Shown: positions 8,819 to 63,400 of the stretch, piece after piece | How positions within the stretch are numbered: position 1 is the stretch's first letter | Layout: every line of letters starts with the position of its first letter | From: Dysidea avara | Lineage: Eukaryota; Porifera; Demospongiae; Dictyoceratida; Dysideidae | Assembly: GCF_963678975.1 (NCBI RefSeq) | Contig: NC_089272.1 | Location: 59,532,574-59,596,573, forward strand | Length of the DNA stretch: 64,000 nucleotides | Reading direction: 5' to 3' | The notes under the pieces: model-generated | Told to the model about the DNA's origin: nothing | The model's database searches: none | What the model saw: the letters and a program-made list of their open reading frames with translations, nothing else | Made by a program: the position numbers and the translations under genes

Positions 8819-8917
8819 TAAGTGAGACCATAGGCGCATCAGTGGGAGGCGGATTCACATGCAGGCGTGCAAAATAATATTAATCATTGAAATTCTTAAT
8901 CAGAGAAGCGCTTGGAT

Positions 8918-10759
8918 ATGGATAGGGATACCACCTTGTTGACTCTTCCACCAGAGTTATTGGTTCACATAATATCGTTTGTGACACCGCTACGCGAAAG
9001 GATGAAACTACGGCATGTTTCACGAAGACTACAAAGTGCGTGCGAAACACCGTCACTGTGGAGGGAGTTTGTATGGCCATATTATCACACTGATGATGAA
9101 AGTTGCATGAAGAACGTGTTAAAGGTGTGTGGACAACATGTGAAACAACTGTCCTTTCCTAATCACGTGACGTCAACATCGATATCTGTGACGACGTTAG
9201 CATATTGTAGCAATGTGGTACAACTTAGTCTACCAACAACAAAGTTAAACTCTGAACAATTAGGAGAGATTTTACTGCACATGGAACATTTACAGAATTT
9301 GGATGTTCGTTGGGAGAGTGATATCAAACAATTACTTGAGTTAATTATACTATATTGCATGAACTTAGAGGAACTCACAATTAGAGAAATATGGTTACAT
9401 AGCATACATTTAAGAGGGTCAGGTTTTGCTAAATTAATGGAGCCATGGATACATTACTGGAAATCAAGTGGATTTGTGCCACATAAATTACATATTGCTG
9501 TTGTGGAATATACTGATGAGCTTTTCCTTGAGCTTGAAGACTTTCTACTGATGGAATCACAGAAGTCAATATCTACTTCACCAAATAGTGGCTTTGGCCA
9601 ACTCATGTTATACACTAGTCTTACAATGCCTATGGATCTTGTTCCTGTGCTACCCGTATTTCAAGTAGAGTTTGGTCAAACAGCTAGTCTTCCATTGGTA
9701 ACTGCTGATATTTGTGGATTTTCGGGATTAAATTTGTTGCTATTAACTGACACTACTCATCACAATAAGACAATTTACAAAGTTTCTCTACGACAAATTC
9801 ATCCTATTATACACACGAGTCATACTTTTACCAATCTTGACCTTTTAACTGAATTTAATGCATCATCTTGTGAAATATATTCTGACCAGTTGGAACAACT
9901 AGCTATTACATGCCCTAATCTTCATCGTCTAAATTTAGAGGATAGCGCACGTTTGAAAAGTTTACAAGGGCTACATGCCATAGCCAGCACCTGTCACAAC
10001 TTACAAGGTCTAAATGTGGTAGGTATGTCAGCTGAACATATTAAGGAGTGCACACAATTATGGGAAATATTGAGTGGCATGAAGTTGACGCACCTTGCTA
10101 TAGATTTGTGCATGTTGTTGTCCTCTGTGGAAGAAGATTCAATAAAGTTGATTAGTTACTTTGAGAAATGTAAAAGTCTGCAAGCATTAGAATGTTATGC
10201 TTTTTGCAGTGACTGTACATCATATTTTACCAGTGGCATATCTACTATATCTCACTTTCCAGCACTTATCTACTTTCAATATGTTCAGTGTCACTTTCCC
10301 TACTTTCCTATAGCACTGCATGACGTAGTCACAAGCTGTAAGCAGCTCAGATACGTGATATTTGCAGGACTTTTCAATCAACAGTATTTTCTCAGTCCAT
10401 GTTTCAGTTATAATTTACAGCATTTATCTATCTCTTTGGTCCATCTGTCCATTTCTAATGACTTTATGAGTTCAATATCTTCTCATGGTAGACTGGTATG
10501 TGTAATGTTCTATGTGAGATCAGTGACCAGTGAAGGAATTACTGTACTGGTAACGAACTCTCCTAATCTATTGAAGCTTTATGTCTTTGTCGATGATCAT
10601 AAAGCAGAATTATTGGATGTAGAAACTAAGCTTAAAACAACAATGCCCAATCGAAAACTGTTTAAATGTGGTGGTTACCAAGTAGAAGAAATTGTTAGCC
10701 ATGTTGCTACAGAACATGCTCACAAGTCACCTGCAGAGCTGCTATCATTTTGGCAGTAA
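8918..10759 (+). CDS. Intronless F-box / leucine-rich repeat protein
   Basis: Predicted 613-residue protein, probably a substrate-recognition subunit of an SCF-type ubiquitin ligase. Residues about 6-50 form an F-box: LPPELLVHIISFVTPLRER, then LRHVSRRLQSACETPSLWREF. This part would bind Skp1. The rest contains repeated leucine-rich segments such as CSNVVQLSLP, HLQNLDVRW, CPNLHRLNLEDSA and CHNLQGLNVVG, the layout of FBXL proteins, which use the repeats to bind substrate. The start is ATG at 8918, in a good context (G at -3 and +4); the frame extends two codons upstream without an ATG. There is no intron, and the nearest genes are kilobases away. I cannot name an orthologue, and the substrate is unknown. 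The frame is undamaged over 1.8 kb, which argues for a functional gene. Confidence 0.88.
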   Translation: MDRDTTLLTLPPELLVHIISFVTPLRERMKLRHVSRRLQSACETPSLWREFVWPYYHTDDESCMKNVLKVCGQHVKQLSFPNHVTSTSISVTTLAYCSNVVQLSLPTTKLNSEQLGEILLHMEHLQNLDVRWESDIKQLLELIILYCMNLEELTIREIWLHSIHLRGSGFAKLMEPWIHYWKSSGFVPHKLHIAVVEYTDELFLELEDFLLMESQKSISTSPNSGFGQLMLYTSLTMPMDLVPVLPVFQVEFGQTASLPLVTADICGFSGLNLLLLTDTTHHNKTIYKVSLRQIHPIIHTSHTFTNLDLLTEFNASSCEIYSDQLEQLAITCPNLHRLNLEDSARLKSLQGLHAIASTCHNLQGLNVVGMSAEHIKECTQLWEILSGMKLTHLAIDLCMLLSSVEEDSIKLISYFEKCKSLQALECYAFCSDCTSYFTSGISTISHFPALIYFQYVQCHFPYFPIALHDVVTSCKQLRYVIFAGLFNQQYFLSPCFSYNLQHLSISLVHLSISNDFMSSISSHGRLVCVMFYVRSVTSEGITVLVTNSPNLLKLYVFVDDHKAELLDVETKLKTTMPNRKLFKCGGYQVEEIVSHVATEHAHKSPAELLSFWQ

Positions 10760-14897: not shown

Positions 14898-15744
14898 CTA
14901 GACATTTGACTCATCCAGTGTTGGATATGTCGGGGCACCAGTTGACTTTATTGACCATTCTTCAAACCCAGGTCGAGCTGACTCGCTTGCTCGTCGCTGC
15001 TTTTGCTCACCCGGTGAAGAGTTCGGCGATTGTTTCATACTTGATGACTTCATCTTTTTCATTAGAGCAACACCATTAGGTGTGGGATCTGTATATTCTT
15101 CGGAGCTCTCAGGCCTCTTTCCTTTCTTAACAACTTTGGACCGTTCATTCTTGTTTGGTGTAGGAGGTGTAGGCACCTCTGAATATTCTCTCTGCACTAC
15201 TTCTTGGGTACTATTATCTGTGAAAGTTTCTGTAAAGGTATCTGGGGGATTAATAACTGTAGTGTAGGATGGTGCTATGTATGGCTCATCTTCTACATCC
15301 TTGTGGGAATTATCAGGAACAGAAGACTGTTGCTGCTGGACTACCACTGACTGTTCATTTGCTCCCGCACTTTGTGGAGGTGTCTGTGTAGTATCAATGT
15401 CCTCTGCTGGAAGTACTTCATACAGACCCTCATTCGGATGACTGACTATGGCATCGGATACAGGAGGCTGTGTTTGTTGGAGTAACTGCTGCTGTAATGG
15501 CTGATATTGTTGTTGCTGCTGCTCCTGTTGCTGTGATGTCCGCCGCAGATTACTATACACAGAATTATTTGATATGAAAAACTGATCATCATGAGCACTG
15601 CGGAACTGTTCTGGCTGTTGTTGCTCAGGTTGTGGAGAATTTCTTGGAGAACGAGAACGCCTCTTCTTATGTTTGATGGGATTGTTCTCATATCTACTGC
15701 TGCTTCTTGATCTAATGCTGGAGTTGGTATCCTTGTGATTATGG
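14898..15744 (-). CDS. Adaptor-like gene exon 5 (cytoplasmic tail, stop)
   Basis: Acceptor TTTTCTATTGTAG, phase 2. Encodes residues 88-368. It contains Q-rich runs, basic KHKKRRSRSPR, six of the seven YxxL/YxxV/YxxP motifs and the C-terminal ESNV. The open frame extends 50 nt further upstream to 15794, but that part is intronic if the splice is used. Confidence 0.82.
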
Positions 15745-18700
15745 CTACAATAGAAAACATTACATATATGAATAGTAGTTGTATGGATGTGCACACAGCA
15801 TGCAGTATAGTAAATATGGTACTTGAAAGCTTAGTGGGTTTGGTAAATGGGAAACATTTTGAGACACTTGGATTTTCAAACTTAAAAAAGCTTACAAATT
15901 TGTAGAGTGCACCATTTTTACCACACTACCACATTTCTTATCATGTGACAAAAGCACTTCACTAGATTTTACGCAGTATAGTGACTGGATACCATGATAA
16001 TCAAAGCACTGTTAATAGTAACAATTGTGACCTGCTGAGCAAAAATCTGACTTATTTGCACTTTACTTTATGACTTCTTTGTTGTCTAGAGGGAATGGGC
16101 TGTTAAGTTTCAGCCTTATCTAGAGAATACTTCGGAGTTACAATATAGTATAAAGGAATAGAGTAAAACAATTGATTCATACAGTGACTATACGGAAAAT
16201 GTACCATGAAACCACCAAACTTCAAAGCCAAATTCCAGGGTACATATCTTATAAACCATGGCTGGCTATGGTACATTTAAAATAAACCATGGCTGGCTAT
16301 GGTACATTTAAAATAAACCATGACTGGCTATGGTACATTTAAATGTACCACGGCCTTGATATATCTGATGAGGTAACGTCGTTTGTTTTTATAAGAATCC
16401 TGGCAGTATTCGATTGTGGGAGTTTATTATTACTCACGTGATGAAAACCATGAACCCGATTTTGCATTCTACAGCACTTATACGAAGGCGATTCGACACC
16501 CTTACCACCCTATGAGTTGACAAACGGAAGTTTAGGGTGAGAACTAGTGTCATGGTTAATTTACAATCGCGTGTCCGCGTGTTTGATTACATACAACGCC
16601 CACTTTTCGTATATCACGAGGTAACCACTCTACAGCGGATGTTTAGAAAACATTGTAAACAGTGGTTAAACGATGTAGCAACTTTGAAACACTTGTTAAA
16701 TCGCAAAATTGAGTGTTTCCGTGATATTCATAGGATTTTCCCGTATATGTTAACAAACGTAACTGCAACGTTACTTGCTGCTGACCCATAATCGAATTTT
16801 ACAAGACTCTCTATATAATAAATCCAGCGGGTTGCCTCGTATTGGCTTGGGTGATAAGTCGCCCACCACAGTAGGCTATTAGCCTACATGGTACACATAT
16901 CAGTTGTATCACGTGCCCTCGTGATTTGCCTGATATGTACACCCACACTCTCGGGCCTAACGGCCCTCGAGCTTGGGTGTACATATCAGGCAAATCACTC
17001 GGGTACATGATACAACTATTACATAAATTACAGGTGTACATAAGTCATGAGTGCAAGAGGCTAATGGAGTTCGGATTTGTCTCCTTGTGTTTGCCATGAA
17101 TAAGGAGAATTCATTAAGGTACAGTTTTTTTTGTCTACATCCATTCAAGCATGAAACTGTTCAAGCTTATAAACAGTGGACAATAATGCTCATTTTGTTT
17201 TGTAATGTAAACACATAGCTCACGTTGCTTTGTGACAGAAACAGCACAAACATATTCGTACTCTTCATGAAGAGGTGAATCAAATGATGTAAAGTTATAT
17301 CAATTTGTGTAGTGTATTGTATGTTCACACTTTTTACCAAATGTATTTTTATCTTTAAAAAACACGGTGACTAGCCAAGTTTTTGCACTCAGCGGGTCAC
17401 AAGACCATGTCACCACTGTATTAATTGTAATAAATATCATGCTCCATCTCACCTTGGAATACATCATACACTACGATAGCAGTGTATAGTAGGGACCACA
17501 AAGGAGTAGGCATGGCCCACAAAATAATATCTTCCTAAAACAGCTTCAAGTTCCCCTAACGACAATCAGGCAGTATTGGTTAGGTGAAACTAAGTCCAAA
17601 AAAGCTTTCAGATCAACCCAAAATGCTTTCAACTAGTTGCTACGGAATTTTAAAAATAATTTAACGGAATTTTGTGCTGACTGAGTAAGTAAGTTACTGA
17701 CTGATGCCTTCAGACAAGCGTAACTTGATAACAGTTAAGGCTACTGGCTTGATTTTTTCACTGTTTGACGTCGCTTCAGCCCGACAGGTGCCTTTTGGCA
17801 TACCGCAGTACGTACAATGCATTCTTCATGGACTTACCAGTGTCCTCCTTTGTGTCCCATTCTTTGCTGACAGTGAAAAGTGTCTATTTGGCGATAGTAC
17901 GTGATGGCTTCCCTTCGTAATGGAAATCGTCCGTAATAATTGTCAGTGGCTATTTTGATATCAGAGGTGCTTTTCAAACAGTTCTTGATTCATACTGCTA
18001 TGTAACGGATTGACAACGAAGCATAATGGATACTTCACTTTTCAGATGATAATTTATATAACTGGGGTGTGCGGCACCATTTCTTTCTTTTGGTATGTGT
18101 GGATTGTAGAGGTGCTTTTTGAACAGTTCTTGATTCGAAATGCTGCATAACGGGTTGAACATAGCTGACAACGAAGCGTAAAGGATACTTCACTTTTCAG
18201 ACGATAATTGGGGCGTGCACCATTTCAGATGCGGTTGCGTGGGTTCACCAGTTATAATTATTATTTCCAAAAAAATTGACAAACAAGTACACAGAAAAAT
18301 TTGGAATTTTCAACTAGAGTAGGGACTGTAACACATAGATAAAAAGTACTGAAACAAGCTGGAGTAGTGCACAATATTAATTCACATTAAAACAATAAGA
18401 AGTGTTATATCCCTACTGTGCTCAAGATACCATGATGGAAATGCACAGTAGGGATATAACACTTCTTACTGTTTTACTGTGAATTAATATCGTGCACTAC
18501 TCCAGCTTGTTTCAGTACTTTTTATCGATGTGTTATGATCCCTACTCTAGTTGAAAATTCCAAATTTTTCTGTGTACTTGTTTATTAGAAGATACATATT
18601 TGCTTATGGAAAACACCTTGCACAGGCTCTTATGTTTTCCCTTCTAGTATATACCTAACTGGTAAAAAATAGATAAACTAAATTCATTGGAAACCTCATA

Positions 18701-21085
18701 AACCTTTGGAGACAACCTAATGTTATAGCAGGGCTTCTTACTGAAACAGAAACCTTCTGAGCACTTAAATAACATACTCATAAAGGACATTGCTAGGCAA
18801 CCACCAGATTGATTCTCACAGCCAATAACTTGATTCACATTAATGTGGTAAGATATAAAGGCCATGTTGTGCTGCTATTATACGGATTTGATAGGATTCT
18901 GTTTTGACAAAGACCACCACTCACCCAGATGAAATGGATCCTCTCCTTGAAAATCTGTATTCTATAGGAGAAGAAATACTTAATGGCATGAACAATTATC
19001 TATATTTAGACTACTTACCGATCTTCTTTATTCTTGTGTTGAAATGGAGCGCAACAAATAACAGGCTAATTCCCAACAACACTGTTATGATAAAATAGAT
19101 AACAAGCAACACCCATACAACAGCAGATGTTGATTCTTCCTTGTTATCAGCAGCAAGTGCTATAAATCAAAAAATAACATGAAACATACTTAGTAAAGAT
19201 AAAACAAATAGTTCATATATATTTATAGAGGCTCCACAGTTCTTGATACATGTAAAACCTATCATAATAACCAGATGTATAGAAGTTGCCACCTTTCTAA
19301 AAACACCAACTTTTAAAATCCGCAAGTAAGAAGCGTACACACTGTGTAATGTACTGACTGTTAAAAGAATGGGTAATTTATTTTGCACGATAATTCTAGG
19401 ATACCAGTTTCATATAAAGAAGTAAACCTTTACAGGGTGTTTGGGTCTGTACATATGTCCTATACAAACTGTATGTGCGAATGCATCAGCAACAGCACAC
19501 ACATGCAAAGCAATGGAATCAAATAACCACTTTCAATCATTTGCTGCTTAATTAATTACCATGGCAAGGCAATGGGCAAGAAAAAACTCGCCCAAGACAT
19601 GAAACCCACTAAGTCAACTACTTGCTTGGGCTGGCACAAAATGACCTCACCAAATTGACATGTAATTACTACCACCAGCAGTACTAAAAACAATACAGAT
19701 GGGATAATTCAATGAATTAATTTAAGCACAACACAAGTTAGTCAATAGCAGATGGGCTGAATGGCTTATCACCAATTACCACATCTGTGTGATGACCAAA
19801 GGGTCATACAGTGAATGCTAAAAAGGTTGACCATAACTGAATTCATTGATATGATCCCATAACAATCACAGGATAAATAGTCAACTTTGTGGCCACCACA
19901 TAACCAAGGCTCCTTTGTAGTACATAACTGATGTGCAAATACAGAAAAATGATATCATTATTGGCAAATGGCAACAAATATTTGGTTAATATTATATAAA
20001 TTAGTATTTGTTGAATAACAACTAAGATATGTAGATGGTTGGAACTAAATAGGCAATACTGGTTATTATGGAAACTAAAGATATGTGTGTAAAATGGTGG
20101 TGTTAGCCACAGCCAGCAGATAAATGATTTCATTCAAGTGTCCACAAAACCTATGCATTCTGAATGGTAAAAATCACACCACTTGACTTACTTGACAGGA
20201 TGACCCTATCGTAAAACATACATTAATTCTCTTGAGTTTTAAACTGCTAATAATGGTAAATGGTCAATTAGTTACAGAAGCAACACTATTCCATGGTAAC
20301 ATGTTTCTAAGCCATTGACCACTAACATAACCACCCAACAACAATATCCAAGATAGACAAGCCCCTTGGGAACAAATATCTGGTCCACCAGTGTACTTAA
20401 CGAAACCTCACACTACAACCACAAAACACAAAGCATTTAATAGGTTAGGTCACGAGGCATCTACAATACAACCTTAGTGACAAGGAAAGGCTGAGGCTCC
20501 ACCTTTGTGTGTGGTGTTAAATAACACTTATTAACACACAGTTGCCAAGCGATTTAATACGCCTACCACCGAAACTAACAAGGATTGGCTTCACAAATGT
20601 GTTTCTATAAAGCACTTTGCATAGCTTGCCGGTCACAAGAGAACAAAAAAACGCATAGGCGCAAACAGCAATACTGGTTGCCCTGATTTTTTCACACCTT
20701 TAGACGCCTTAGTTACACCCTCCCTACCCTGGCTACACCATTAGTTCTCACCTGACGATATCAAACAGCACAGGAACAAATAACTCCAGTAATGTGACAT
20801 GTTTAATCTACAAGTAACAAAATATACACATAAAAACATGCCGCTGTCATCTAAGTGTCACAAACAATGAACTCCTAAATGCCCATACACTTGAGGGCTA
20901 TTTGAAACGCTAGCAGTTTTAATAGCTAAGTTTAGCTTGTAAAGCTGTAGCGACAACGTTACAAAACAGTAAACTACTTAACGTGAAACTTTACGACCAG
21001 CGCAAACAAGTTGAGATAATCATAGGACTATTAACAGGATAGCCACCTGTTTCACTAACCTTAAAACTCTTAAACTAGCCGCCAT
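14898..21085 (-). CDS. Single-pass membrane adaptor-like protein (five exons)
   Basis: Assembled by me from GT-AG sites and phase. Exons are 21085-21060, 20807-20752, 19159-19019, 18961-18925 and 15744-14898: 1107 nt, 368 residues. Phases 2, 1, 1 and 2 close without gaps. Residues 12-30 are a signal peptide (MSHYWSYLFLCCLISSALA, A-L-A before the likely cut). The ectodomain is then only about 10 residues (ADNKEESTS). The membrane span is residues 40-67 (VVWVLLVIYFIITVLLGISLLFVAL), and the tail begins NTRIKK. The tail is rich in Arg/Ser, then Gln, and has tyrosine motifs Y150SNL, Y167QPL, Y195EVL, Y242IAP, Y274SEV, Y304TDP and Y360PTL, Pro-rich PTPPTP, and a C-terminal ESNV (class I PDZ-ligand pattern). 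The architecture recalls DAP12/FcR-gamma-like or LAT/PAG-like adaptors. No family was recognised. An extra phase 1-1 exon in intron 2 cannot be excluded. Confidence 0.78.
16251..16343. repeat. 31-bp tandem repeat, three units
   Basis: ATAAACCATGGCTGGCTATG plus GTACATTTAAA repeated three times with one change, in the last intron of the adaptor-like gene. It is followed by an inverted TTTAAATGTACCA. Confidence 0.85.
16552..16791 (+). CDS. Unassigned small ORF in an intron, opposite strand
   Basis: Possible 79-residue protein (MVNLQSRVRVFDYIQ...TLLAADP). It lies wholly inside the last intron of the minus-strand adaptor-like gene. The ATG has G at -3 and G at +4. The protein is basic, with two spaced cysteines (KHCKQW and IECFRDI), predicted helical character and no signal peptide or membrane span. 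CG dinucleotides are commoner here (CGCGTGTCCGCG) than in surrounding intron, hinting at a CpG-containing promoter or coding segment. I recognise no family. It could be a small single-exon gene, a 5' exon of a longer transcript or a chance frame in a conserved non-coding element. Upstream bases 16480-16551 show no TATA box. Confidence 0.35.
   Translation: MVNLQSRVRVFDYIQRPLFVYHEVTTLQRMFRKHCKQWLNDVATLKHLLNRKIECFRDIHRIFPYMLTNVTATLLAADP
16903..17016. repeat. Inverted repeat, 43-bp arms
   Basis: Arms 16903-16945 and 16974-17016 (starting GTTGTATCACGTGCCCTCG and its complement) differ at only a few bases. The loop is GC-rich with CGGGCCTAACGGCCCTCG. Probably a small foldback transposon. It lies just after the small ORF. 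Confidence 0.8.
17640..18583 (-). repeat. Composite repeat copy 2: full palindrome plus body with internal duplication
   Basis: Read on the minus strand, the palindromic module (18583-18281) precedes the body (18255-17640), the same order as at 5937-6625. Within the body a segment of about 120-150 bp (GAGGTGCTTTT...CACTTTTCAGA) is duplicated in tandem (about 17965-18110 and 18111-18235). The insertion lies in the last intron of the adaptor-like gene. No coding capacity is preserved. Confidence 0.72.
18281..18583. repeat. 303-bp near-perfect palindrome
   Basis: From AAACAAGTACACAGAAA to TTTCTGTGTACTTGTTT the two halves are reverse complements with scattered mismatches, with a loop of only about 25 nt near 18432. 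A shortened relative (5937-6080) lacks much of the middle. If transcribed as part of the adaptor-like intron it would form a hairpin of about 140 bp. Confidence 0.85.
18925..18961 (-). CDS. Adaptor-like gene exon 4 (37-nt micro-exon)
   Basis: Acceptor TTTCTTCTCCTATAG, donor GG|GTGAGT. Encodes the juxtamembrane EYRFSRRGSISSG, residues 75-87 including both split codons. Length 37 nt fits exactly the phase 1 to phase 2 change between exons 3 and 5. A second AG 7 nt in would break the frame. Confidence 0.72.
19019..19159 (-). CDS. Adaptor-like gene exon 3 (ectodomain stub and membrane span)
   Basis: Acceptor TTTTTGATTTATAG, donor G|GTAAGT. Phase 1 to 1. Encodes LAADNKEESTS, then the 25-residue hydrophobic helix, then HFNTRIKKI. 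The basic residues after the helix predict a cytoplasmic C terminus. Confidence 0.82.
19160..20751. other. Intron 2 of the adaptor-like gene
   Basis: 1.6 kb with no exon-like frame of phase 1-1 that I could find on the minus strand and no recognised domain, which supports the very short ectodomain. Confidence 0.5.
20752..20807 (-). CDS. Adaptor-like gene exon 2 (signal peptide)
   Basis: Acceptor TTGTTACTTGTAG, donor CAG|GTGAGA, 56 nt, phase 2 to 1. Encodes LNMSHYWSYLFLCCLISS. An internal ATG (residue 12) would itself start a compact signal peptide, so translation may begin here rather than in exon 1. Confidence 0.75.
21060..21085 (-). CDS. Adaptor-like gene exon 1 (start codon)
   Basis: ATGGCGGCT start (A/G at -3, G at +4), encoding MAASLRVL plus two bases, then donor AAG|GTTAGT. 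It is the weakest exon: the protein could instead start at the methionine in exon 2. Confidence 0.55.
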
Positions 21086-21443: not shown

Positions 21444-48259
<26,816 letters not shown>

Positions 48260-60200: not shown

Positions 60201-60444
60201 CATAGAGAACACATGGCATTTATTCTGAATAGAGCACTGTCAAAGCACATGGTACCTTTTCTAATTGAAGTACTGAGCAGCTCAGCAGTTTTTAGTTTGG
60301 TTTCTTATTGAAAATTCTAAAGTTAGCAGTTACAGAAAAGTTTGTATGCATGTGTATATATATTATGCAAGCAATATAATATATATTGTACCATTGTGTA
60401 TCAGGTCATTCTTAGTTCCATTGGACTAGCTTGTCAACACAACC
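57257..60444. other. Intergenic, no gene supported
   Basis: A diverged SINE-like tail (AACAAGCTGTAGCTAG...ACCAGGTGTCCC) lies near 58655-58725. TTCTTGTGGTGAGGGGTG (59050) and TTTTTGTGGTGAAAGGTGCA (59812) begin two similar stretches of unknown nature. The 98-codon frame at 59816-60112 has no recognised features. Confidence 0.4.
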
Positions 60445-63400
60445 ATGTCATCCTCCAAGAAGTTTAAACTTATTGACACTTGGGAAACATCTTCATCTCA
60501 ACAGCCAGCTGGTACAAACTGGGAGCTTTGTGTTATATGTCAGGAAGTGACAGCAGAACCACTTACTTCTCCTTTGAATTCAAAAAGAAATGACATTGGA
60601 AAGGGATATCAATCACTTGCTGAAAACCTGGTCAAATTTGATGAATTGGGAAAGTTACCAAGGACCTTGCATTTAGACAGACTGAACGAAGGACAAGGTA
60701 TTGAAACAGCTATGATTACCAATAAGGTTAAGTGGCATAAGACATGTAGGCTCCATTACAACAACCAAATGCTACAAAGAGCAGGAAAAAGGGAGCATCA
60801 AAGCCCAGAAATAGATGATGCTCCACGCAAGTGTAGTCGATTGAAGTCTTTACTTAAGTCTGATGGGAAATTGTGCTTTTTCTGTGGTGAAGAAGGTGGT
60901 ACTGATGGCCTACATGAGCTGACAACTTTTCAAGTGGACCAACGTGTACACAAGTGTGCTAAACTCACTGGAGACAGTTTTCTCTTGGCAAAACTGAGTT
61001 TAGGTGATATGGTAGCTTTGGAAGCTAAGTACCATACCAAGTGTTTATTGGCTCTGTACAACCGTGCAAGGAAGGTGCAGGCTCCTCAGCAACAAATAAG
61101 TAGTAAAGATGATGTAGTATCAGGAATCATATTTGCTGAGCTTGTAATGTATATTGAAGAAGTTTGTTTGGAAGCAAGCATTTCGCCAGTTTTCAAACTC
61201 ACTGATATTTCACAACTCTACATGTCTAGAATGCAACAGTTTGGAGTCATGAGGGACAAAAGAATGCATACAACCTGACTGAAACAAAGACTGCTTGCAC
61301 ACTTTCCAGATATGCGAGCTCAGAGTAAGGAGAGAGGTGTTATGCTTGTATTTGATAAAGATATTGGTGCTGCACTTGACAAAGCCTGTGACCAAGACAG
61401 TGACAGTGAAGCTGTTTATCTAGCACGTGCTGCACAGATTGTACGCCAACACATGTTTGACCCCACACCCTTCACTGGAACATTTGAAGAAAATTGTCAG
61501 GAAAGGTCTGTGCCACACTTACTGCTTTCATTAGTAAGTATGGCGTTGGAAGGTCCAAGTATCAAGGACCAACTTCGTGAATGTTCAACACCGTACCAGC
61601 AGCACTTTTCATTGCCCAGATTTTGAAGTATAACAGTGTTAAACACATGCATAAACAGGTAGATGTCACCTCATCTCTCCGTCACAGTTCTGCACAAGAA
61701 ACACCACTCCCAATCTATGTTGGGCTATTGCTGCATGCACAAACTTGAAAGAGAGATTTGGTGGACAGTTTATTCAACCTTGGCCTAAACATTTCTTATG
61801 ATCGTGTGCTATGTCTTTCAGCAGAGATGGGAAACAGTGTATGCCAGCGCTTTCATGTGGAGCAAGTTGTCTGTCCACCAACGTTGAAGGGCAACACGTT
61901 TACAACAGCTGCTGTGGATAATCTTGACCATAATCCCAGTGCTACAACTGCCAAGGATTCATTCCATGGAACTGGAATTTCTTTATTACAGCATACCACT
62001 AGTGCTAATGGGGGTATGTGTATGGGCACCGTCATCATGGGAAGTAATGCCGATTCAAAAACTATTAGCTGTCTGCCACATTTCTATACTGATGTGCCGC
62101 CTATTACATCCACTATGAAACAGTCAACTCTTCCTACCACCAGTATGATATCTCTTAAACAGGATAACTACAGGAAGCATGCTGAGGGAGAGTACAGATG
62201 GCTAGAGAACACAAGGCATGTTCTGGAAGAAAATGCTGAGCTGGAGAATGTATCATGGGCTGCATATCATGCAGAGCATCAGGAATTGTGTGATCGAATC
62301 ATCACACCAACAGCATTACTCCCCTTTTTTCAGGAGAACGCTCACACAGTTGCAATGATTAGACATTCAATGGACGTAGTAAAGAGTGCTGTTGAGCACC
62401 TCAATACAGGACAGACTCCAGTTCCAACATTTGACCAGCCACTCTTTGCTTTGGCTAAACAAATCCAGTGGAAGTGGCCAGAGAAGTACGGAGAGAAAAA
62501 GTTTGTTGTTATGTTTGGTGGCTTACACATCGAGATGGCAGCACTGAAGATTATTAGTGACTGGCTAGAAAGCAGCAGATGGGCACAAGCACTGGTTCAA
62601 GCAGAAATTGCAACAGCAGGAATAGCTGTACAAGGCATCACATGTTATGCGCACAAGAAAGGCTCACCAAATTATAGCTGCTGCCTTATATACTCTGCAA
62701 CACCATGCCTATGAAAATTATAGTCTTACCTGCTTGAAAGATGGTCAGACCCAGATGGAATTTGAGACCTGGTGTGATGAGAGAAAACAGAATTGTCCCC
62801 AGTTTTAGTACTGGGCAACAACAATGGAGCTAGAAGTTTGTATTCTAACTTACGTGCGATCCCTAAGAGAAGCCAACTTTTCCATGTATCTAGATGCCTT
62901 AACAGAACTTGTTCCCTGGTTCTTTGCACTAGACCACACGAACTATGCTCACTGGATACCAGTGCATTTAAGAGATATGGCTGAACTTCCCAAGACACAC
63001 CCAGATGTTTATGGAGAGTCAATATTGGTCATTTCACGGTGCAAAACACCAAGCGAGTTTTCTCAGCAATCCCTATAGACCAAGCACACGAACAAAATAA
63101 TGCCTGTGTAAAGGGTGATGGGGGTGCAGTTGGCCTCACTGATAATCCAAGTGCCCTGCAGAGGTGGATGATTTCTGGGCCAGAGGTTGCTAGAATAATT
63201 GGAGAATTTGAAAACTCTGATCAACAGGAAAATGGAAGAGTAAACACTCATCACCATGACCAAACAACAAGTGTGCAGACATCTTTTGCAAAAGATGTTC
63301 ACACTCTGTTGGCTGTTATTGAAGAGTTTGGAAACCCATTTGAAGAGAAGAGTCAGGACTTGCTTGTTCTTGATACAAAGGAAATTGCAGACTCTGCTGT

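What the first reader, a model, noticed from the sequence alone, without database searches (positions are those of the whole stretch)
14898..21085. A DAP12/LAT-like membrane adaptor architecture in an early animal
Five exons join in perfect phase to give a signal peptide, about 10 extracellular residues, one membrane helix and a long tail. The tail has seven tyrosine motifs (YSNL, YQPL, YEVL, YIAP, YSEV, YTDP, YPTL), a proline-rich stretch and a class I PDZ-ligand end (ESNV). YSNL and YQPL are 13 residues apart, just outside the usual 6-12 spacing of an ITAM. Unlike DAP12, the membrane helix has no charged residue, so pairing with a receptor as DAP12 does is unlikely. If real, this is a candidate phosphotyrosine scaffold with no family I can name. 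Sequence shows the exons and motifs; the signalling role is inference.
Basis: partly seen in the sequence, partly recalled or inferred. Interest (0 to 1): 0.85.

Follow-up and report, generated by a model that had tools for sequence, protein, structure and literature searches.

The report
Conserved animal membrane phosphotyrosine scaffold
An early animal, probably a sponge, carries a gene for a small membrane-anchored protein whose long floppy tail holds tyrosine docking sites kept across related species, so it looks like an ancient cousin-in-function of the signalling scaffolds best known from vertebrate immune cells.

Summary
Five minus-strand exons join in phase into a 368-residue ORF: signal peptide, about 9 extracellular residues, one membrane helix, a long tail predicted to be disordered. 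The exon-5 tail belongs to a conserved family: 11 related proteins in public sequence data, in two groups (near group 71-75%, plus one near-identical; distant group 41-48%). Seven tail tyrosines are shared by both groups (Y105 YENN, Y150 YSNL, Y167, Y195 YExL, Y247 SY[T/I]T, Y274 YSxV, Y304 YTDP), as is a C-terminal class I PDZ ligand (ESNV/ESDL). The ITAM idea fails: its second half is lost in the distant group, and the helix has no charge. The best analogue is a PAG/Cbp- or LAT-type transmembrane adaptor, without a palmitoylation CxxC. The same genome encodes Src-family, SYK, CSK, GRB2, NCK and SHP2-type proteins; its GRB2 keeps the loop that reads YxN and one CSK keeps the residue that sets CSK specificity. 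Best reading: a Src-phosphorylated membrane docking scaffold recruiting GRB2 and probably CSK. Transcripts, binding, and the membrane exon in relatives remain unshown.

The parts
21060..21085 (-). Exon 1, 26 nt, first ATG (Met1)
   Evidence: donor GTTAGT
20752..20807 (-). Exon 2, 56 nt, signal peptide core (Met12 ... LFLCCLISS); the AxA-type cleavage site SSALA|AD has its first Ala split across the exon 2/3 junction
   Evidence: cleavage rule recalled, no signal-peptide predictor was run
19019..19159 (-). Exon 3, 141 nt: short ectodomain, uncharged membrane helix AVVWVLLVIYFIITVLLGISLLFVALHF, basic stop-transfer RIKK
   Evidence: (19-residue hydropathy up to 2.94)
18925..18961 (-). Exon 4, 37 nt, juxtamembrane YRFSRRGSISS; skipping it would shift the frame
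14898..15744 (-). Exon 5, nearly the whole cytoplasmic tail and the stop, conserved in 11 relatives, predicted disordered
15681..15692 (-). Y105 YENN (GRB2-type YxN): Y in 8 of 8, YENN in 7 of 8 covering rows
15546..15557 (-). Y150 YSNL/YRNL (GRB2-type YxN): Y in 9 of 10, NL in 10 of 10 covering rows
15495..15506 (-). Y167 YQPL/YTPN: Y in 10 of 10 covering rows, context weak
15411..15422 (-). Y195 YE[VMTS]L: 12 of 12
15270..15281 (-). Y242 YIAP: Y in only 4 of 12
15255..15266 (-).
15174..15185 (-). Y274 YS[E/D/V]V: 12 of 12, resembles the CSK site pYSSV of PAG/Cbp
15084..15095 (-). Y304 YTDP (YxxP, CRK type): 12 of 12
14916..14927 (-). Y360 YPTL: only this sequence and its near-identical P0001 (2 of 11 covering rows)
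14901..14912 (-). C-terminal class I PDZ-ligand ESNV/ESDL: 11 of 11 rows with an intact end (P0007 stops short)
   Evidence: the class I rule is recalled

Best explanation
A single-pass membrane docking scaffold that works like the transmembrane adaptor proteins PAG/Cbp and LAT. The signal peptide and the helix hold it in the membrane with almost nothing outside; the disordered tail is phosphorylated on tyrosine, most likely by the genome's Src-family kinases. pY105 (YENN) and pY150 (Y[S/R]NL) recruit GRB2 and so the Ras route; pY274 (YS[E/D]V) recruits CSK, a brake on Src; pY304 (YTDP) recruits a CRK/NCK-type adaptor; the ESNV/ESDL end tethers it to a PDZ scaffold. Shown: ORF, splice signals, hydrophobic helix, tail conservation, presence of partner genes (Src, CSK, GRB2, NCK types). 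Inferred: phosphorylation, each partner, location, direction of signal.
For: Gene model and membrane exon. Conservation: tyrosine columns match the distant group at 0.78 against 0.39 for all 281 residues (64 of 20000 random sets as high), positions +1 to +3 at 0.54-0.56 against 0.08 at -2, as SH2 docking sites would be. Motif table. No folded domain seen: no Pfam hit near its cut-off, tail model mean pLDDT 50. Partners in the same genome: 133 SH2 matches (150 of 173 candidates scored); Src-type and NCK-type ORFs by eye, SHP2-type by eye, SYK-type, GRB2 with the loop GKYFLWVVKFNSLN identical to the GRB2 chain of 1gri, a CSK gene whose pieces match recalled human CSK at 28-70% identity (the lowest runs across introns) with Glu at the position of Glu127. 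Papers (passages only): GRB2 wants +2 Asn, CRK +3 Leu/Pro (PMC3514216); Cbp peptide pYSSV binds CSK SH2 at about 0.5-1 uM (PMC5071372); Glu127 sets CSK versus CHK SH2 specificity (PMC10016382).
Against: No transcript, phosphorylation or binding data. Exons 1-4 are seen in this genome alone; the search for a relative of the membrane exon found nothing. YxN at Y105 is broken in P0005 and Y150 is His in P0008. No juxtamembrane cysteines, so no raft anchor as in PAG or LAT. YSxV may suit other SH2 domains than CSK. Lys (0.61) and Arg (0.53) columns and position -1 (0.53) are also above the mean, so not all conservation is about SH2 docking. PDZ partners in this genome were not seen.
Confidence: 0.62

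Rival explanations
1. Sub-case of the best explanation. Chiefly a PAG/Cbp-like brake: the main job is Y274 bringing CSK to membrane Src, with the PDZ end as anchor; GRB2 sites are secondary.
For: Y274 motif in 12 of 12 while each YxN site shows one loss; CSK with Glu127 kept; pYSSV precedent.
Against: +2 is mostly acidic here (E/D; V once) and Ser in Cbp; no CxxC; no binding data.
Confidence: 0.35
2. Sub-case of the best explanation. Chiefly a LAT/FRS2-like positive docking protein for receptor tyrosine kinases, through two GRB2 sites and YTDP.
For: Two YxN sites; FRS2 pYENI and pYENL bind Grb2; GRB2 loop identical; a paper found no Dof in the sponge Amphimedon and judged its sponge Frs2 match to be something else (PMC7260276, passages).
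Against: FRS2 and Dof reach receptors through folded domains (recalled); none here. Each YxN site is broken in one relative.
Confidence: 0.3
3. The tail belongs to a larger receptor: ectodomain exons in the 1.6-kb intron 2 were missed, or are used in other transcripts.
For: Exon structure is unproven; relatives' upstream exons unseen.
Against: Longest in-phase open AG..GT segment in intron 2 is 168 nt, reached in 52 of 100 mononucleotide shuffles; an AxA-type cleavage site forms at the exon 2/3 join.
Confidence: 0.12
4. Soluble protein: exon 5 (or a different 5' end) makes a cytosolic tyrosine-rich scaffold without a membrane helix.
For: Database relatives are exon-5 ORFs only.
Against: Junction residues look like a translated splice acceptor in 7 of 7 sequences that read past it; one linkable membrane exon, found in 2 of 100 shuffles.
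Confidence: 0.1
5. ITAM adaptor like DAP12, signalling through the genome's SYK-type kinases.
For: YSNL and YQPL in this species; SYK-type SH2 genes present.
Against: Spacing 13 outside 6-12; +3 Leu of the second half absent in 6 of 6 distant rows that cover it; no charge in the helix.
Confidence: 0.03

Closest known systems
[quoted passage not shown]
   Same: Short ectodomain, one helix, long tail with several tyrosines, a Y-S-x-V site, C-terminal PDZ ligand (recalled; the PAG-EBP50 link seen only as a reference title)
   Different: No CxxC palmitoylation motif; a predicted cleavable signal peptide (its absence from PAG is recalled); GRB2-type YxN sites; no sequence homology found
LAT and the other lymphocyte adaptors NTAL, LAX, LIME, SIT, TRIM
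   Same: General layout as defined in PMC2803307 (passages); several Grb2 sites as in LAT, LAB and LAX (PMC3291652, abstract start in the listing); LAX, SIT and TRIM also lack CxxC
   Different: No homology found; PDZ end; not a vertebrate
FRS2 and Dof docking proteins
   Same: YEN-type GRB2 sites as in FRS2
   Different: A membrane helix in place of a folded receptor-binding domain (recalled)
Choanoflagellate transmembrane proteins with cytoplasmic YxxP repeats (PMC5043372, passages)
   Same: Membrane-anchored SH2 docking tail outside vertebrates
   Different: Those have several YxxP repeats, some with extracellular domains or SH2-like domains; here one conserved YxxP among mixed motifs
DAP12 (TYROBP; features recalled)
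   Same: Short ectodomain, one helix
   Different: No charge in helix, no conserved ITAM, far longer tail

Membership tests
Transmembrane adaptor proteins (TRAPs, as defined in PMC2803307) | Short extracellular part, single helix, long tail with several tyrosine motifs | tested here: met
   as predicted from the gene model
Transmembrane adaptor proteins (TRAPs, as defined in PMC2803307) | Tyrosines phosphorylated and bound by SH2 proteins | not testable with these tools
   Only conservation of motifs and presence of partners
Transmembrane adaptor proteins (TRAPs, as defined in PMC2803307) | Sequence homology to one of the seven vertebrate members | tested here: inconclusive
   No Pfam family and no named relative; no direct comparison with the vertebrate members was run; such tails diverge fast, so absence is weak
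PAG/Cbp | Juxtamembrane CxxC palmitoylation motif | tested here: not met
   The only cysteines are C22 and C23 in the signal peptide
PAG/Cbp | CSK-binding tyrosine site (YSSV type) | tested here: inconclusive
   YS[E/D/V]V in 12 of 12; binding untested
PAG/Cbp | C-terminal PDZ ligand | tested here: met
   ESNV/ESDL in 11 of 11 intact ends; the class I rule is recalled
DAP12 / ITAM adaptors | YxxL/I x6-12 YxxL/I | tested here: not met
   Spacing 13 here; second half lost in 6 of 6 distant rows that cover it
DAP12 / ITAM adaptors | Charged residue in the membrane helix | tested here: not met
   Residues 40-67 hold no D, E, K or R

The most novel reading that the evidence does not exclude
A PAG/LAT-type transmembrane phosphotyrosine scaffold, complete with CSK and GRB2 docking and a PDZ anchor, was already at work in early animals long before lymphocytes, either as a convergent invention or as the deep ancestor of the vertebrate adaptors.
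Probability: 0.4. Interest if true: 0.78.

Novelty: new variant of a known kind. Interest (0 to 1): 0.62.

Why it matters
Membrane scaffolds that turn tyrosine kinase activity into assembled complexes are best described in vertebrate lymphocytes (PMC2803307, passages), while the kinases and SH2 proteins they serve are far older (PMC8662651, PMC5043372, PMC7260276, passages). This would be a conserved early-animal scaffold joining Src, CSK and GRB2, with a short list of peptide tests that can prove or kill it. In the parts of the listings that I saw (20 of 58, 20 of 384, 15 of 40, 12 of 25, 12 of 276, 12 of 23 and 10 of 296 papers) no title was about such a sponge protein; the library lacks most subscription journals, and I read no paper whole.

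Tried and rejected
ITAM/DAP12: rejected on conservation and on the helix. Hidden ectodomain in intron 2: nothing above chance. Hidden folded domain in the tail: Pfam hits all far below cut-off; weak PDB hits to NAP1 (best E 0.075) are judged low-complexity matches; tail model mean pLDDT 50 with one weak hairpin at exon-5 residues 169-188, not searched further. Relatives of the membrane exon: none. Homologous loci in genome contigs and viral contigs: none confirmed (34 and 40 pattern matches). RNA families in the window: none at gathering score. Paralogues by protein search of the own genome: not completed, so unknown; by DNA, exon 5 has one match. PDZ-domain count in the genome: not completed. 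The first alignment misplaced YExL; I realigned with another MAFFT mode, which all motif counts use. No signal-peptide or membrane predictor was available beyond a hydropathy script.
Full report
Gene model. The gene lies on the minus strand. Five exons at 21060-21085, 20752-20807, 19019-19159, 18925-18961 and 14898-15744 join in phase to 368 residues, with GT..AG at four of four introns. Two starts are possible, Met1 in exon 1 and Met12 in exon 2. The predicted chain is a signal peptide ending SSALA|AD (the AxA rule is recalled; no predictor was run), about 9 outside residues, a helix with 19-residue hydropathy up to 2.94 and no charge, a basic stop (RIKK) and a tail of about 300 residues.

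Chance. 2 of 100 dinucleotide shuffles returned any. The thresholds were set after the model was known, and the scan does not test exons 1 and 2 (exon 1's donor is GTTAG). The longest in-phase open segment in intron 2 was 168 nt, matched in 52 of 100 mononucleotide shuffles, so no ectodomain exon stands out.

Relatives. Two protein searches gave eleven relatives of the tail: P0001 at 99% (probably the same species), P0002, P0003 and P0010 at 71-75%, and seven at 41-48%. They are ORFs of exon 5 from unnamed ENA or JGI records. In 7 of 7 sequences that run past the start of exon 5, counting the window, the junction residue is Ser or Arg right after C, Y or F, which is what a translated splice acceptor gives (inference). 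No relative of the membrane exon was found, so the membrane part rests on this genome alone.

What is conserved. Counting only rows that cover the site, the window included: Y105 8 of 8 (YENN 7 of 8; P0005 has an inserted Glu); Y150 9 of 10 (His in P0008), with N at +2 and L at +3 in 10 of 10; Y167 10 of 10, context weak; Y195 YExL 12 of 12; Y247 SY[T/I]T 12 of 12; Y274 YSxV 12 of 12 (x is E or D, V once); Y304 YTDP 12 of 12; C-terminal ES[N/D][V/L] 11 of 11 intact ends. Not conserved: Y242 4 of 12 and Y360 2 of 11. Rows are not independent: P0001 repeats the window, and P0004/P0007 and P0005/P0009 are 89% and 86% identical. Against the distant group, tyrosine columns average 0.78 identity against 0.39 for all 281 exon-5 residues; 64 of 20000 random sets of nine did as well; +1 to +3 average 0.54-0.56 and -2 only 0.08. 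Position -1 is also high (0.53), and Lys (0.61) and Arg (0.53) are above the mean, so basic stretches are conserved too.

Fold. No Pfam family came near its cut-off. The exon-5 model has mean pLDDT 50 and pTM 0.16: mostly disordered, as expected of a docking tail.

Partners. The window lies in a 550.8-Mb genome with one match of exon 5 by DNA search. It has 133 SH2 matches at E up to 1e-3 (150 of 173 candidates scored), counted exon by exon and so not a gene count. I read ORFs on the right strand for 20 of the 30 automatic loci (8 of 8 plus-strand, 12 of 22 minus-strand) and for 19 of 20 further fetched regions. Names by eye from recalled sequences: Src-family SH2-kinase (L002, L004, L005), ABL-type (L003, L007, L015, L020), SHP2-type (L012), NCK-type (L014, L039), RASA1-type (L025). 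By PDB search: SYK/ZAP-70-type (L021, E 1.3e-46 to SYK) and GRB2 (E 5e-84). For L014 the PDB search gave RASA1 (3.9e-34), PLCG, GRB2 and NCK (1e-30) chains close together, so NCK rests on the SH3-SH3-SH3-SH2 order read in its near-copy L039. GRB2's loop GKYFLWVVKFNSLN equals that of 1gri in the alignment; that its Trp imposes +2 Asn is recalled. PMC10016382 (passages) says Glu127 separates CSK from CHK SH2 specificity.

Mechanism. Two GRB2-type sites, one YSxV and one YxxP on a membrane-held disordered tail fit a multivalent Src-substrate scaffold. PMC3514216 (passages) gives +2 Asn for GRB2 and +3 Leu or Pro for CRK, and lists FRS2 pYENI and pYENL as Grb2 binders. PMC5071372 (passages) gives 0.52 uM for reduced and 0.99 uM for oxidized CSK SH2 with Cbp ISAMpYSSVNK. 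I put the scaffold reading at 0.62; the split between a mainly braking (CSK) and a mainly activating (GRB2) role, the first two rivals, is open.

Known kinds. TRAPs are defined by short ectodomain, one helix and several tyrosine sites, with CxxC in LAT, LIME, NTAL and PAG only (PMC2803307, passages). Layout met; homology not shown; CxxC absent. So it works like a TRAP but is not filed as PAG or LAT. DAP12 is out. PMC5043372 (passages) reports choanoflagellate membrane proteins with YxxP tails, a precedent for membrane docking tails outside vertebrates. PMC7260276 (passages) found GRB2, CRKL, SOS and SHP2 but no Dof in the sponge Amphimedon.

Verdict. A real, conserved, unnamed gene family with a credible and testable role; not DAP12-like; two listed motifs are not conserved and two conserved ones were missed.

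Noticed in passing
21444-21830 (+): A TAF7-like gene starts about 360 bases from this gene in divergent orientation (TAFII55_N E 3.1e-4, 20.9 bits, below the family cut-off of 25, on two joined exon pieces), so the two may share a promoter region.
   Followed up: partly
8915-10756 (+): Single-exon F-box protein ORF, leucine-rich by eye (F-box-like E 3.8e-10).
   Followed up: partly
18281-18583: Inverted repeat in intron 4, 141-nt arms at 95% with 21 nt between, and another with 56-nt arms at 86% at 16902-17017; possible MITE-type elements.
   Followed up: no
60430-61275 and 61749-62711 (+): Two long ORFs without a Pfam hit at E 0.01, perhaps a mobile element.
   Followed up: no
L002, L004, L005, L008 and other loci on C13:16.6-17.6 Mb; [quoted passage not shown]
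   Followed up: partly
L062 and L063 (C7:3.326-3.339 Mb): Two CSK-type genes side by side; one keeps the Glu127 equivalent, the other has Arg there, like a CSK/CHK-style split.
   Followed up: partly
L021, L022, L046 (C5:6.39-6.40 Mb): Several SYK/ZAP-70-type SH2 exons close together (L021 by PDB search; L022 and L046 by eye), suggesting tandem SYK-like genes.
   Followed up: no
15180-15239 (-): The tail model shows one weak hairpin (exon-5 residues 169-188, pLDDT about 80) ending around Y274, in a stretch poorly conserved in the distant group.
   Followed up: no
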